From positions 558,001 through 622,000 of the forward strand of contig JAIWWG010000007.1 in assembly GCA_025435555.1 (NCBI GenBank): 64,000 nt of DNA, given 5' to 3'. This document shows, one piece after another, positions 12,536 to 18,789 of this stretch. Under the pieces are notes generated by a model, which saw only the letters and a list, made by a program, of their open reading frames with translations, was not told where the DNA came from and did no database searches. The position numbers and the translations under genes are program-made. The DNA is from Chytriomyces cf. hyalinus JEL632. Its lineage: Eukaryota; Chytridiomycota; Chytridiomycetes; Chytridiales; Chytriomycetaceae. How positions within the stretch are numbered: position 1 is the first letter of the stretch; every line of letters begins with the position of its first letter.

Positions 12536-15274
12536 TCAGAAGCGGACCAGTTTGGCTCCAATCACCTGCACATCAAGCATCAGCCGGTACCCTTCCTCAT
12601 CTACACCCATTTCTCCCTCATGATCGGTCAAATCTGCAGCAATCTGCAAAATCGGTCCATTCTTGACAGCGCAATACGCGCCACCTTCTTCTCCAAAGAC
12701 ATTGCCCAGCTGTTGCTGCTCGGTCACATCGCGATTCACAAACTGAGCACCTTCACGGAACACAACCACATCTTCTTTCGGCAAAGCAGCAGGCGGTGCG
12801 TCGTCCATGACAATCACACGCTCCTTTGGGGGGCCCATCGCACCACGCGCCAGATTTCGTCGTTTCACCGACGCCCGCTCGTCATTTGATCGGATTGGGG
12901 GAGTTCCCGCACCTACAACCACCACAGCTTTTGGCATCGTCAATGGCGCATCACGGTCATTCAATACAGGAGGCGGCAATATTGTGGCGACGCCTGAGAG
13001 AGCTGAACGAGTGGTAGTCACAAACGATGGAACTTCGTTATTGGATGCAGCAAAGGCAGTAGGGAATATGGAGCTCATGGATTCATTTCCGCCCTTCTCA
13101 TCAGGGATCGAGAGAAGTGCGTGCAGTGCCTCCCACCGCTCTTTCGAAACACGGATTTTCGGGGCATGTGTAACTTTTGGTGAACCGCCAGCATCACTGC
13201 TGAAGGGATTTTGATTATTCGCAGACTGTGTCTCGCTGTTTGCAGTCGTAGTGGTGGGTGATACATCCGCAACAGTCTCGCTTTTCGAAGTGGATGATTC
13301 TGCACCCGGAACGTGCCATTCAATCTCACCGAGTACCCAGTCCAGCACTTCTTGCATCGCGCAAACTCGTGGAGCAACCGATTTGAACGATTTGCTCGAT
13401 TCATTAGTAGTTTGCAAATGCTGCTTTTGAGGTTGTGGCAGAGGTATTGGCACAAAGTATGGCACTCTTTTCGAATTTGTGTGTGCACCAGGAATGGGCA
13501 TAGTGTAACCTGTAGTATCCGCGCGAATTGCAACGGCTCTGTTACTGATACTCAAGAATGGGAGTTGGATAAGTCCACTTGATTGCGGGTAGAGAACCAA
13601 GAGTTCGCTGGGAGGTCGCGGGTCAATGGAGTTGAGACGGGGCGGTGCATCCAGGGTGGCTTTGAGGTATGGATTGCGGCTGGATTCAATTGCATCTGTT
13701 GGACTCGGTTCTTGCAGAACACGTGGGAGGTAGTGCGACAGGCCGTTGAAGATGGGGCTGAAAGGTTTGGAAATTTTTTGAGCAAATTGGAATTGAGTCC
13801 ATTCGAAAACAAAACTCACGTTTTCACGCTGAGATCCGACGAATGCGTTCCATTGGAGGTAAAGAAATGCGTGCCTTGAAACAGCGACGATGGGAACATG
13901 AAAAGGGAGAAGGAAAACAGAAACGCCTGAATTGGAAATCCGGTGATGAGATTGTGTGACCGCAGAAATAATTTTTTTTTAAGGGCAACTGCTCACCATC
14001 ATGACAGTGCCAGTTCCAGTGGACGATGCATTTGCAGAACCAAAGAAGAAGTCGAAAAATGCATTGTCCATCGCTTCCACGGCCGTGGTTTGCAGTCCAT
14101 CCATTCCCATGTCCACCCCCATGAAAGCATCCGACGCAGTCCGCTTCAAGTTTCCAGAACACAGATTTCCGCTGCCCAGCAGCGGATCAGCCTTGAATAG
14201 AGAATCGAAATTCGCTGTTACCGCTGCTGAAGCTGCCGCAGATGCATTCGCCGCAGCACTGACATGCTCGGCCCACGCTTCTACTTCGAGCACCCGAGTC
14301 CGCAGCACCGAATTCTCCTTAAGAAGCTCCCTGCACATGTTTTCTAGTTTTTCTACGTGTTCCTTGTGCTTTTTGCGGCTTTCATCGGCACTTGCTCGAT
14401 TCTTCATCATGCGCTCCTGATGCTTTGTGAATGCAGGAACCGGAGTGACTGCAGGTACTGCAGGAGCATTTACTGTAATGACTGGATTTAACGAAATGGT
14501 TGGAGGTGGGGAGCTGCGTGTGGAAGTGGGTGATGTTGCTGATAAGGGCATCTGGGGTGGGCTGTAAGAGGTATTATTCGGGCTGAAAGCAGTATTTGTT
14601 GGTGTCAGATAGTCTGCAGCACTGAAGCTGAGTTTTCTCTTCGAGTCGATTGCCGGAGTTGGGCTGATAGAAATAGGGAATAATGATGTCGAAGCAGATG
14701 GCATAATTGGGACAGGTGGTTTCGCAGCCAGAATGGTCACAGACTGATCATGATTCGAAGCAGCTAGGCTTTTCGGGATATCCGTCGGTGGGCTCGACTT
14801 TGCCTTCTTTCTCTGTGTTGATTGGATTGGCGTTGATTGGATTGGCGTTGGCTCCGACTTGATGTCCGGCTGGTTCTTCTTCCTTCCAGGCTTCTTCTTG
14901 ACGGGTCCCGCAAGCAGCGCGAGACATTCTGAAGCATTGTCTGAAGATAGAGCAGCGCGCACGGTGTCGGATTGAGGTGGTAAGGTGAAGGCAGGACCCA
15001 TGCCCAATACACTATCGACGCCGATAGGAACCAGACTCTCAATTCCCATCCCCATCCCACCCATCAAGAGGTCGTCGGTATTCAGTACATCTCCGCCCAA
15101 TGAGTGCATGGCAATGCCTGTCGCACAAGTTGCCTCCTGGGTCATTGCCATTTCGAATCGTTTCCCAGTTTCGCTCTCTTCGCCACTGGCATTGCCGCTG
15201 TCCGGCCCACTCGGAGAAGATATCAGCGACGAGAGCAGCGAATCGACCTCGTCCTGGCTGCACTCAAAGTTCAT
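12536..15274 (-). CDS. Membrane-tethered bZIP transcription factor (ATF6/CREB3-like layout)
   Basis: Three exons on the minus strand: 15274-13997, 13926-13820 and 13757-12536 (868 aa; introns of 70 and 62 nt, GT-AG, phase-consistent). Residues 1-280 are Ser/Pro/Thr-rich with a Lys-rich PVKKKPGRKK patch. Residues about 284-335 form a bZIP: KNRASADESRKKHKEHVEKL has the N-x7-R basic signature, followed by Leu/Met/Val heptads. The first exon junction creates a hydrophobic helix, TVMM|AFLFSFSLFMFPSSLF, at about 423-442. About 425 Ser/Pro-rich residues follow, with NGT and other possible N-glycosylation sites. A bZIP, then a single helix, then a long C-terminal domain is the plan of ER stress factors ATF6/CREB3/plant bZIP28. 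If the first intron is not used, exon 1 alone encodes a 431-aa soluble bZIP and 13899-12536 a separate 433-aa protein of unknown function. Confidence 0.7.
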
Positions 15275-15389: not shown

Positions 15390-17475
15390 TCACACACCCA
15401 GCACTGCAGGCACAGGCTTCATCAGCAGATCATCCACATGCTCAAGCAACCTCTCCAGCCCCACATGCCGTCCGCGACTATCCTTCTCACCAATACCCTC
15501 CGCATTCACTTCCTGCATGATCCCAATGAACGAATCTGCATTCGTAGCGGCTGAAGAAGGCTTCCCCACAACCTTCTTGCGATACCCGTACGCCGTCTCC
15601 ATCTCGGACTTTAAATTCGACCGTTTCTGAATTCTCGCAAGCACAGTTTCATCCGCGTCCGCGATCATGTCGCGTTTGGGCCATGTTTCGATGGTTTCAA
15701 GGCGCGCTGGTAACGTGGTTTGCGGGGCGGAGAGGTTAGCGAGTTTTCCGGTGAGTGGGTCTTGGCGGCGGGATGTCAGACGTAATGCGCATTGTTCTTG
15801 GCTTGCGTTGAGCCAGATGAGTCTGTACCGCAGTTGGTTCGTTCATGGATGATGTCTTGTTCAGAAGCGTTGGTGAAGGAGGTGATGAGATGTGTACCTG
15901 TTTGGGTGGATGTTACGCTCCGTCAGTGCCGCCGCCTGGGTTTTGGAGTTTGGGAATCCCTCCAGAACCCATCCCTGATTCATGCAATCTGGTTGCTGCA
16001 GACGCTTGACAATCAAATCCAGCAAAAGATCATCTGGAACTAATTTGCATTTGCAAGTTAGACACACGACTTTTCTCTGCATTTTCAGAGGGCGCTTTAC
16101 TTTCTTCGGGACTGTGAATGTACTCTTTCAGTGTTTGAGAGAGACGCGATTTCGACGACATTTCTTCGAGAATGATCTTCTTCGGCGACACTGCAGCGGA
16201 ATAAAAAAGTCAATTTTGAACGCAACCAAAGCACACACCAACTTTATGCAACCACATACCGTGCACAAATGCGTACTTTCTCTCAATCTCAGCAGCAAGA
16301 CTAGACCTCCCGCTTCCAGGCAAACCTTGAATCACAACGCGAAACTGTCTGGGCGCTCTCGTCGCCCCCTTCATACCCAACGCACTCCGCACAACTTCAT
16401 CCACCACTTGCTTCTGTCTCCCCCACACCCCGTCACTGTCCATGTACTTGAAGCGCACGCAGACACCGGCTTTTTGAAAACACGCAGCCACGGGCGGGAT
16501 ACTGCGACGGTACGCTGATAGCCGCTTTGAGACTGTTTCACGTGCATTGTATTCTCGGTTCACGAGACGAGAAATGAGTTCGGCGTCTTGAGGGGGCGGG
16601 TTGTGTTTGGGGTGGTATTCCTGCAAAATGGCAAAAGGTGAATAGCTTGCTCTTGATTTGCGATATTTCAGAACAGAAAGACCTTTTTCATGACTGGGTC
16701 CGTCAAGATTTCAGAATTGTACTGCATAATTGCCTCGTCTTCGCAGTCGATCCATACTAAATCGTACCCCAGAGATTAACCGCACACACTACAAAAACCC
16801 ATCACAGATAATGCTCACCAAAACTAGTCAAAAAGATCCCCTTCATCTGAAACGCGGCAGCCTGCTCCTTCGTGGCAGGAAACCCTTCAATCACGAAGCC
16901 AGACAATGAAATATCTGGTTCCTGAAGCCGCTGAAGTACCAAATTCAAAATGATTTGGTCTGGCACAAGTTGCCCACGTTCCATGTACGGACGTGCTTGT
17001 TGTCCTAGGGAGCTTTGGCGTTCGATTGCTGATAGAAGCAGGGTGTTGACGGAGATAAAGACGGCGTTTTGGATGATTGAAATCTTTTCGGCCTGTTTTA
17101 TTTTTTTGTGCGAGTTGAGGGGTTTGGGAATGAATGCGTGAATTGAGTGAAGCGGATTCGGTTTGGTACTCACAATCTTGCTGATTGCGCATCTTGGAGG
17201 GCCGCAGACGACGATAGCAGGGACTAATTTGAATAATGGAAAGAGGCTTGGTTCAGTTTCCCATCGATCATTGGCAGTCTGTAGCGCCGGACGACGCGTA
17301 AACAAAAACGCATACGTTGCGGCACTTTGAGAAAGTCAATCATGAACTGGAGCGGGTCAGGTGGCTGCTCAACCACTACCGCCTTCACCAAACTCTCAAA
17401 CAGATCGAATAGCTCGTGATGGTCTGCGTACGATGCAAAGAGTTGGACTTTGGCCGGGTCCAGGATTGGATCCAT
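15390..17475 (-). CDS. AK8: Adenylate kinase 8-like protein (flagellar)
   Basis: Eight exons on the minus strand: 17475-17316, 17223-17174, 17092-16819, 16756-16683, 16620-16260, 16190-16101, 16039-15898 and 15822-15390 (527 aa). Every intron is GT-AG and every phase closes. The protein has two adenylate-kinase modules, as in AK8: module 1 with [31 protein letters not shown] and [14 protein letters not shown]; module 2 with [31 protein letters not shown] and [14 protein letters not shown]. The N-terminal [18 protein letters not shown] also matches AK8. Both P-loops are altered: in the first the GK[ST] signature is lost, and in the second Lys is replaced by Arg. AK8 is an axoneme/cilium-associated protein in animals, which fits a zoospore-forming fungus. 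It diverges from the next gene across about 90 bp. Confidence 0.93.
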
Positions 17476-17565
17476 TCTTGTGTTTGGACAAAGTTGACAA
17501 ATTAATTTTTTTTTTATTTCAAGTTTCTCACGCTGCCTTGAAGCGTACAAAATGGGGGGAGTCGT
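17476..17565. promoter_or_regulatory. Compact divergent promoter region
   Basis: Only 90 bp separate the start codons of the AK8-like gene (minus) and the membrane-protein gene (plus). The stretch includes a T run (about 17504-17516). No specific factor site is recognised; the call rests on gene arrangement alone. If the downstream start is 17599 the gap is 123 bp. Confidence 0.4.
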
Positions 17566-18789
17566 GTGGGGCGCGCCATAAAACTTTGGGAATATACAAT
17601 GAGTTGCTGCTATGTATCTTCGACTGGTGCTATCGCGCAATGGAAAGTGTGGCTAAACGTGTCAGTGACTGGCGTGCCATTACCCATCTCTGCCAACAAC
17701 GCAACGCCTCTCTCTGAATACACCCGCATCGACCTTCTCCCACCGACCGAACGCGGCAACTACAGGTTTGATGCACCCGTGGTGGTATCCAATGGAAAGC
17801 CGCTGGCACAGCCTGCACCGTGTCGACCATTGAATGCAACAGGCGCTTCGTGGGTGTGTCTGATGACCAATGCTCCACTTCGCAATGTGTTTGCATTTGC
17901 AATCAACACGGCTGAGGCGCTCCCACCAGATTCGATTCCAGCTGTTGAGCAAGTATCGGTGTTTGTGCAGGACCCAAAAGACGCGAGTGTGGGGGTCGAT
18001 GACGCTGCCATGTCTCGCACGCGTTCCACGGCGTGTACGGAAGCGGATTCGAGCTGTCCAAAAGCGCCGGATCCGGTATCTCCAGGCGACAGTGGTGGGT
18101 CCAACAACAACAACAGTCTGTTCAAGAACAACTCAAGTGGACTCTCGCCCACATCTGTCACGCTCATTGCAATCTTTGTATCCGTCGCAGTTCTCTCCGC
18201 TTTGATTGTGGTGTTTCTGCGGTTGCGCAACAACGGCTCGTTCAAGCAATGCGCCGCTTGGTGGCACAGACTCTCAACAGACGATCACCCACGTGCACAA
18301 CCTCCTCCTCCTCCAGCCTTGTCACAAACTCAGCCGCAACTTGAAGCTTCCAAATCCACAGCATCCTCAGACTCGGCCGAAAGCACGGCATCCCCGTCCA
18401 AACCCACCCCCATCAAACGCTCACAAAGCCCCGTTGTTGCAATGGAAATTCTCGAGAATGTCAGTAAGGCCAAAACGGGCGTGTCACGGGCCGTGCGCAT
18501 TAACCCGCTCGCGTTTAACCGGTCAATCCATGCAGTCAAGCAGCACAGTTTCGGCAGACACGCTGCTGCGACGATGCCGAGACAGGGCGGGGGCGGCAGC
18601 GGTGGCGGGCGCGTGAGTCCAAGTGAGAGCGTGAGCACAATGGCGTTTTCTGTGCTTCGGGAAACGCGTGTAAACAAAGGGCATGAGAAGAGTGGGCAGC
18701 ACGGCGCGAGTGATGGAGATGATGATGATGATGACAATGACGATGATGATGTACCGTTGGGGCAGATGAAGAGAAATGCAGCGACGTGA
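17566..18789 (+). CDS. Single-pass membrane protein with Ser/Asn-rich ectodomain and acidic tail
   Basis: Open frame of 407 aa. An alternative start at 17599 (MSCCYVSSTG) is plausible. The N-terminal half holds several NXS/T sites and Cys residues (CRPLN, WVCLMTN, CTEADSSC). One transmembrane helix, VTLIAIFVSVAVLSALIVVF, is followed by RLRNN as stop-transfer. The cytosolic part is Pro/Ser-rich, with a Gly-rich stretch and an Asp run near the end. No signal peptide is visible, so an upstream exon may be missing. I do not recognise the family; the plan resembles the gene at 1987-2943. Confidence 0.6.
   Translation: MGRAIKLWEYTMSCCYVSSTGAIAQWKVWLNVSVTGVPLPISANNATPLSEYTRIDLLPPTERGNYRFDAPVVVSNGKPLAQPAPCRPLNATGASWVCLMTNAPLRNVFAFAINTAEALPPDSIPAVEQVSVFVQDPKDASVGVDDAAMSRTRSTACTEADSSCPKAPDPVSPGDSGGSNNNNSLFKNNSSGLSPTSVTLIAIFVSVAVLSALIVVFLRLRNNGSFKQCAAWWHRLSTDDHPRAQPPPPPALSQTQPQLEASKSTASSDSAESTASPSKPTPIKRSQSPVVAMEILENVSKAKTGVSRAVRINPLAFNRSIHAVKQHSFGRHAAATMPRQGGGGSGGGRVSPSESVSTMAFSVLRETRVNKGHEKSGQHGASDGDDDDDDNDDDDVPLGQMKRNAAT

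What the first reader, a model, noticed from the sequence alone, without database searches (positions are those of the whole stretch)
12536..15274. A fungal bZIP factor that splicing turns into a membrane-anchored ATF6/CREB3-like protein
Seen: a bZIP (residues about 284-335), a 70-nt GT-AG intron whose removal creates the hydrophobic run TVMMAFLFSFSLFMFPSSLF, and about 425 further residues in frame through a second intron. Known: ATF6, CREB3 and plant bZIP28 share the order bZIP, single helix, long luminal domain, and are released by proteolysis under ER stress. In yeasts the ER stress bZIP is soluble Hac1. Inference: this lineage may keep a membrane-tethered bZIP. Alternatively, retaining the intron gives a soluble 431-aa bZIP, so splicing could switch between anchored and soluble forms.
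Basis: partly seen in the sequence, partly recalled or inferred. Interest (0 to 1): 0.8.

Follow-up and report, generated by a model that had tools for sequence, protein, structure and literature searches.

The report
Membrane-anchored bZIP factor in chytrid fungi
A chytrid fungus and its close relatives carry a gene-control protein that appears to be tied to a cell membrane, like the stress sensor ATF6 of animals, although fungi are usually thought to lack such a sensor.

Summary
On the minus strand, 15274-12536 is one three-exon gene. Splicing 70-nt and 62-nt GT-AG introns gives 868 aa: bZIP (284-335), hydrophobic segment (423-442), then 426 aa. It is identical to the deposited Chytriomyces cf. 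hyalinus JEL632 protein BJ741DRAFT_593046. A hydrophobic run in some frame below a bZIP is common here (19 of 27 loci), so one sequence proves little. Conservation does: 11 further proteins from seven genera (family Chytriomycetaceae) keep the order. A paralog on contig C34 is open only when spliced; its C-part is under purifying selection (dN/dS 0.16).

Most likely it is a single-pass, membrane-tethered bZIP released by proteolysis. An Ire1-type RNase domain, a separate XBP1-like bZIP, an M50 protease and signal peptide peptidase are in the genome; S1P domains were not found (no positive control). Topology, cleavage and stress induction are untested. The C-part is mostly disordered, poor in glycosylation sites, with no profile match to recalled ATF6 ends. 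It resembles ATF6/CREB3 in anatomy; membership is unproven. A splicing switch is possible: retention of intron 1 ends the protein at 431 aa and the C34 copy is annotated so, but a third copy lacks that stop.

The parts
13997..15274 (-). Exon 1, residues 1-426: N-terminal region with conserved GPVKKKPGRKK motif, bZIP, [LF]F[DEN]xFF motif, start of the hydrophobic segment
14270..14425 (-). bZIP domain, residues 284-335 (KHQERMMKNRASADESRKKHKEHVEKLE...)
   Evidence: Pfam bZIP_1 E 1.1e-9, bZIP_2 E 4e-7; CREB is the best PDB sequence match, E 8.8e-4; dN/dS 0.007 between paralogs
13997..14008 (-). Hydrophobic segment, first part (TVMM, residues 423-426)
13927..13996 (-). Intron 1, 70 nt, phase 0; its removal completes the hydrophobic segment; retention stops translation at TAA 13981-13979
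   Evidence: the C34 paralog has an 85-nt intron here; the deposited protein is spliced here
13975..13988 (-). Intronic stretch TTGCCCTTAAAAAA shared exactly with intron 1 of the C34 paralog
   Evidence: function unknown
13879..13926 (-). Hydrophobic segment, second part (AFLFSFSLFMFPSSLF, residues 427-442)
   Evidence: A-x-x-F-S-x-S-x-x-x-F-P-x-x-x-F invariant in the 12 aligned sequences
13820..13926 (-). Exon 2, residues 427-461 and part of 462
13758..13819 (-). Intron 2, 62 nt
12536..13757 (-). Exon 3, rest of residue 462 to 868 and stop; C-terminal part
   Evidence: C34 paralog 78% identical over it, dN/dS 0.162
13712..13723 (-). R-V-L-Q (residues 474-477) in the YxPRVL motif about 30 residues after the hydrophobic segment; possible S1P-like site (inferred)
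   Evidence: the aligned Arg is present in 10 of 12 sequences, absent in P0007 and P0011
12842..12901 (-). Conserved basic helix PPIRSNDERASVKRRNLARG (residues 748-767)
12539..12679 (-). Conserved C-terminal module (residues 822-868), predicted beta hairpin, ends RLMLDVQVIGAKLVRF

Best explanation
It is a single-pass, membrane-tethered bZIP transcription factor of chytrid fungi. The spliced mRNA makes a protein with its bZIP on the cytosolic side, held by one hydrophobic helix (423-442), with about 426 residues beyond it. On a signal, proteolysis beyond and then inside the membrane would release residues 1 to about 430, which enter the nucleus. Shown: gene structure (by sequence and deposited model), order of parts, conservation, purifying selection on the C-part, and presence of an M50 protease gene and a signal peptide peptidase gene. 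Inferred: membrane insertion, orientation, compartment, cleavage and the signal.
For: Joined protein identical to a deposited model. Same order in P0002-P0012: 11 proteins, 7 genera; P0012 lacks the N-terminal part (its contig is 2886 bases) and P0006 is deposited as partial. The segment holds the top 19-residue hydropathy window in 11 of 11 proteins scored (P0001-P0011): 1.85-2.14 in ten, 1.28 in P0005, whose model reads intron 1 through. Seven positions of the segment from its Ala onward are invariant in 12 sequences. The C34 paralog has introns of 85 and 83 nt at the same sites and is open only when spliced; after intron 1 dN/dS is 0.157 and dS 0.82. AlphaFold2 gives a low-confidence helix at the segment in both models. 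The genome has an M50 match with HEAGH just over the Pfam cut-off (28.1 against 27.2 bits) and a second M50 piece under it (23.5 bits), and an SPP gene.
Against: No RNA, localisation or cleavage data. No dedicated topology predictor was available; the membrane claim rests on hydropathy and on a summed insertion scale whose values were recalled (0.0-2.1 in ten proteins, 5.6 in P0005). Flanking charges do not fix the orientation: -3 to +3 before the segment, 0 or +1 after. The C-part is mostly below pLDDT 50, with no Foldseek match at E 0.001 or better (best 3.6 and 1.5). Its N-glycosylation sites are few and not conserved: 12 observed against 29.4 expected by shuffling, summed over 12 related sequences. 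Two S1P domains gave no match, without positive control.
Confidence: 0.6

Rival explanations
1. The hydrophobic segment is not a membrane anchor. The whole 868-residue protein is a soluble nuclear factor; the segment is an interaction or activation motif, and the basic helix and C-terminal hairpin act in the nucleus.
For: The segment is conserved in sequence and not only in hydrophobicity, as a binding motif would be. The C-part is mostly disordered in the models, with a conserved basic helix, 1-2 Cys and no conserved glycosylation sites.
Against: About 20 residues without charge, hydropathy 1.85-2.14 in ten of eleven proteins and the top window in all eleven; helix predicted at low confidence.
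Confidence: 0.22
2. Intron 1 is a regulated switch: retention gives a soluble bZIP of about 431 aa, splicing gives the anchored form. This can be true together with the best explanation.
For: Retention ends in ..VSSCP* in both JEL632 copies. The deposited model of the C34 copy is the 432-aa retained form (P0013), while that of the window copy is spliced. Intron 1 aligns between the copies at 61.5, above all 1000 shuffles (mean 28.9, sd 5.3, maximum 46.0); intron 2 at 45.5 (mean 30.2, sd 5.1, maximum 50.5).
Against: The two deposited models may be ab initio guesses. P0005 read through the intron has no stop and keeps the C-part, so the truncating stop is not conserved. dS of 0.75 is low enough that introns may still be similar without selection. 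The intron is an ordinary GT-AG intron. DNA of only two copies was at hand.
Confidence: 0.2
3. Two genes: the bZIP gene ends at 13979 and exon 3 belongs to a separate downstream gene.
For: Exon 3 lies in a long open frame of its own (13978-12536); the C34 copy is deposited as bZIP only.
Against: The joined form is modelled in deposited genomes of seven genera. The reading frame across both junctions is kept in the two copies in spite of intron lengths 70/85 and 62/83.
Confidence: 0.03

Closest known systems
ATF6 (ATF6alpha/beta) of animals
   Same: Order bZIP, single hydrophobic helix, long C-part; similar basic region (20 of 40 identical to the recalled ATF6 bZIP)
   Different: About 87 residues, with an FF motif, lie between residue 335 and the helix; the C-part is mostly disordered in the models; no profile match to recalled ATF6 and ATF6B C-termini; a separate Ire1-type domain and XBP1-like bZIP are in the same genome
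CREB3/OASIS family of animals (CREB3, CREB3L1-4)
   Same: Type of anatomy; basic region (21 of 49 identical to recalled CREB3L1 for the window, 21 of 45 for P0011); the window's helix against recalled helices: shuffles reaching its score are 2 (CREB3), 1 (CREB3L3), 4 (CREB3L1) and 42 (CREB3L2) of 2000; an Arg-x-hydrophobic motif after the helix
   Different: The helix likeness fades in divergent members (P0012: 106, 260, 163, 1597 of 2000; P0011: 41, 63, 201, 876); reference letters are recalled and unverified (one search found none in print); the helix lies further from the zipper than in CREB3, where it is immediately C-terminal (PMC3116243, passages)
Plant bZIP17/bZIP28 (recalled)
   Same: Membrane-tethered bZIP released by proteolysis, as a design
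   Different: No sequence comparison made; recalled only
Fungal Hac1/HacA/Cib1/Hxl1 and animal XBP1
   Same: bZIP regulators, of ER stress in the known cases
   Different: Soluble, with an Ire1-type intron (recalled); this genome has its own XBP1-like gene on contig C200; intron 1 here reads as a GT-AG intron

Membership tests
ATF6/CREB3-type membrane-bound bZIP factors | bZIP with ATF6/CREB3-like basic region | tested here: met
   Pfam bZIP_1. Among ten references, nine of them recalled, the window scores CREB1 95, ATF6 90, CREB3L1 88, then ATF4 72 and CREB3 71; P0011 scores CREB3L1 99, ATF6 94, CREB1 88. CREB1 is soluble, so this does not single out ATF6/CREB3.
ATF6/CREB3-type membrane-bound bZIP factors | Single hydrophobic helix C-terminal to the zipper | tested here: met
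   Top hydropathy window in 11 of 11 proteins scored; motif in 12 of 12 aligned; hydropathy only, no topology predictor
ATF6/CREB3-type membrane-bound bZIP factors | C-part lies in the ER lumen (type II) | tested here: inconclusive
   Flanking charges and glycosylation sites do not decide
ATF6/CREB3-type membrane-bound bZIP factors | S1P and S2P cleavage | tested here: inconclusive
   Aligned Arg of the RVL motif in 10 of 12; M50 protease present; S1P domains not found, without positive control; cleavage itself not testable
ATF6/CREB3-type membrane-bound bZIP factors | C-part homologous to the ATF6 luminal domain | tested here: not met
   Profile of 11 C-terminal tails (47 positions) scores -0.4 to -1.6 bits against recalled ATF6 and ATF6B ends; the best of 20000 shuffles reaches 6.8. 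No Pfam or PDB sequence match of the C-part
ATF6/CREB3-type membrane-bound bZIP factors | Activation by ER or secretory stress | not testable with these tools
   No expression data
Hac1/XBP1 factors | Ire1-type intron flanked by CNG-CNGN hairpin loops (consensus recalled) | tested here: not met
   By reading: intron 1 is GT-AG with neither boundary of that type; no hairpin scan was run on it

The most novel reading that the evidence does not exclude
Chytriomycetaceae kept, from the common ancestor of animals and fungi, an ATF6/CREB3-type membrane-tethered bZIP arm beside Ire1 and Hac1/XBP1, and added intron 1 retention as a proteolysis-free way to make the soluble factor.
Probability: 0.15. 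Interest if true: 0.85.

Novelty: new variant of a known kind. Interest (0 to 1): 0.6.

Why it matters
PMC10512342 (passages) describes the fungal unfolded protein response as Ire1 with Hac1, and ATF6 and PERK as further metazoan arms. A conserved tethered bZIP in a chytrid family would be a candidate for a second, proteolysis-driven arm in fungi. It would make testable whether the ATF6/CREB3 design is older than animals or arose again. In the listings and passages that I saw from paper searches there was no report of such a protein in chytrids; two searches matched more papers than they listed, and the library lacks most subscription papers.

Tried and rejected
Two-gene reading: rejected on frame and conservation. 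Homology to the ATF6 luminal C-terminus: by eye LDVQVVGAKLV resembles a recalled ATF6 stretch, but the profile test fails; not claimed. PDB and Pfam searches of the C-part: no useful match. Second protein search: returned only P0009 and P0011 and missed known relatives of fitting length (P0006, P0007, P0008), probably because low-complexity words filled its candidate list; the third, with masked blocks, added P0012 and P0013. None of the three returned a relative outside Chytriomycetaceae, but each scored only about 8000 candidates, so absence elsewhere is not shown. Search of paper text for recalled letters: nothing, so they stay unverified. A search for papers on the ATF6 luminal domain gave a listing only and was not used.

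Full report
What is there. The gene lies on the minus strand. Exons 15274-13997, 13926-13820 and 13757-12536, separated by a 70-nt and a 62-nt GT-AG intron, give 868 residues with no stop. The joined protein is identical to BJ741DRAFT_593046 of Chytriomyces cf. hyalinus JEL632 (P0001), so the window comes from that fungus and its depositors made the same gene model. Whether that model rests on RNA is not known to me.

More than chance? I fetched 27 of the 30 bZIP matches outside the window. In 19 of the 27 (one is the C34 paralog) some open frame within 1.5 kb downstream holds a 19-residue stretch of hydropathy 1.85 or more. A single hydrophobic run made by a possible splice would therefore mean little. 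The relatives decide it. Three protein searches gave 11 further proteins with bZIP, segment and C-part (P0002-P0012), from Chytriomyces, Obelidium, Siphonaria, Entophlyctis, Physocladia, Podochytrium and Rhizoclosmatium. The look-ups for these seven genera all give family Chytriomycetaceae. P0012 begins inside the bZIP, and P0006 is deposited as partial. A further hit, P0013, is the deposited model of the second JEL632 copy and stops at intron 1. The segment reads roughly GTVxMAxLFSxSxxxFPSSLF; in the 12-sequence alignment seven of its positions from the Ala onward are invariant.

The paralog. Contig C34 holds a second copy. Its introns sit at the same places but measure 85 and 83 nt; after splicing it gives an 875-residue protein, 80% identical over 863 aligned codons. 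dN/dS is 0.007 in the bZIP, 0.111 over residues 419-445 (27 codons) and 0.157 after intron 1, where dS is 0.82. The C-part is thus a constrained protein sequence attached to the bZIP. The deposited model of this copy, 432 aa, ends in VSSCP, the retained-intron form.

The C-part. Two AlphaFold2 models, from 11 and 12 sequences, have low mean confidence (38.6 and 48.7). The bZIP is confident; beyond it only a basic helix (PPIRSNDERASVKRRNLARG) and a C-terminal hairpin (YCAVKNGPILQIAADL...YRLMLDVQVIGAKLVRF) stand out, with a weak helix at the hydrophobic segment. No useful PDB or Pfam match to the C-part was found. N-glycosylation sites in the C-part number 12 against 29.4 expected over 12 related sequences; in the N-terminal part they number 26 against 18.4 over 11 sequences. 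This does not show a luminal position. Depletion could even mean that the part meets the glycosylation machinery, but the sequences are not independent. An Arg-Val/Ile-Leu/Phe motif lies 27-50 residues beyond the segment core; its aligned Arg is present in 10 of 12 sequences. It would fit an S1P-like site; that is an inference, with the site consensus recalled.

The cell's other parts. The genome encodes an Ire1-type RNase domain (E 2.3e-45), an M50 metalloprotease piece with HEAGH just over the Pfam cut-off and a second piece under it, and signal peptide peptidase (E 1.1e-40). Two S1P-specific Pfam domains gave no match, without a positive control; 33 subtilase matches exist and I did not sort them. 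A separate bZIP on contig C200 resembles recalled XBP1 best (19 of 38 identical). Near its stop it has a hairpin whose loop CAGCAGC fits the recalled Ire1 site consensus, but the scan found no partner hairpin for the other end, and the area is rich in CAG repeats. If so, the tethered bZIP would be a further arm, not a substitute for Hac1.

Is it ATF6 or CREB3? In the bZIP the closest of ten references are CREB1 (PDB chain), ATF6 and CREB3L1; the nine other than CREB1 are recalled letters. CREB1 is soluble, so the bZIP alone does not decide. The window's helix scores against recalled CREB3, CREB3L3, CREB3L1 and CREB3L2 helices are reached by 2, 1, 4 and 42 of 2000 shuffles; for P0008 by 1, 2, 5 and 61; for P0009 by 3, 10, 131 and 215; for P0011 by 41, 63, 201 and 876; for P0012 by 106, 260, 163 and 1597. 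A profile of the C-terminal module does not match recalled ATF6 ends: scores below zero, while the best shuffle reaches 6.8 bits. Common descent is possible but unproven; likeness in design is what I claim.

The splicing switch. Retention in both JEL632 copies would truncate the protein just before most of the segment. Intron 1 is more similar between the copies (alignment 61.5; 1000 shuffles 28.9 +/- 5.3, maximum 46.0) than intron 2 (45.5; 30.2 +/- 5.1, maximum 50.5), and shares TTGCCCTTAAAAAA. Against a conserved coding switch: in C. hyalinus P0005 the intron read through has no stop and inserts 24 residues. With the introns of only two copies at hand as DNA, this stays open.

Literature. 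Passages of PMC10512342 give Ire1 as the fungal sensor, with ATF6 and PERK as further metazoan arms, and report PERK-like kinases in anaerobic fungi. PMC13294678 (passages) describes a candidate fungal membrane-bound factor with an NDT80 domain, not bZIP. PMC10406608 (passages) reports that non-Dikarya fungi keep many protist genes, and that gamma-secretase was lost only in Dikarya and some other lineages. PMC3154848 and PMC3116243 were read in passages. In the listings and passages that I saw, no membrane-bound bZIP of chytrids is reported; two of these listings were cut.

Noticed in passing
L023 2499-2513 and 2655-3258 (G000:C200:75000-79500): XBP1-like bZIP gene with a 4-bp hairpin and 7-nt loop CAGCAGC shortly before its stop, and an acidic open frame downstream: a candidate Ire1-type intron. 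The scan found no partner hairpin in range and CAG repeats are common there. A second bZIP match of equal score lies inverted at C200:83221-83379, not fetched.
   Followed up: partly
window 13975-13988 (-) and the C34 paralog in L014: TTGCCCTTAAAAAA in intron 1 is identical in the two copies; P0005's read-through protein is compatible with the same core in another frame (by reading).
   Followed up: partly
window about 15390-17652 (-): Adenylate kinase-like gene whose last open frame ends 115 nt upstream of the bZIP start on the same strand (weak ADK match in 16213-16710). P0002 (C. confervae) and P0010 (Physocladia) are deposited as adenylate kinase-bZIP fusions, so the gene order is shared; co-transcription or misannotation.
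   Followed up: partly
G000:C145: 13 of the 31 bZIP matches lie on this one contig: a local bZIP cluster.
   Followed up: no
L021, L030, L032: 3 of 27 other bZIP frames have a stretch of hydropathy 1.8 or more after the bZIP in the same open frame (2.46, 2.09, 1.82); they may be unspliced noncoding tails or further tethered factors.
   Followed up: no
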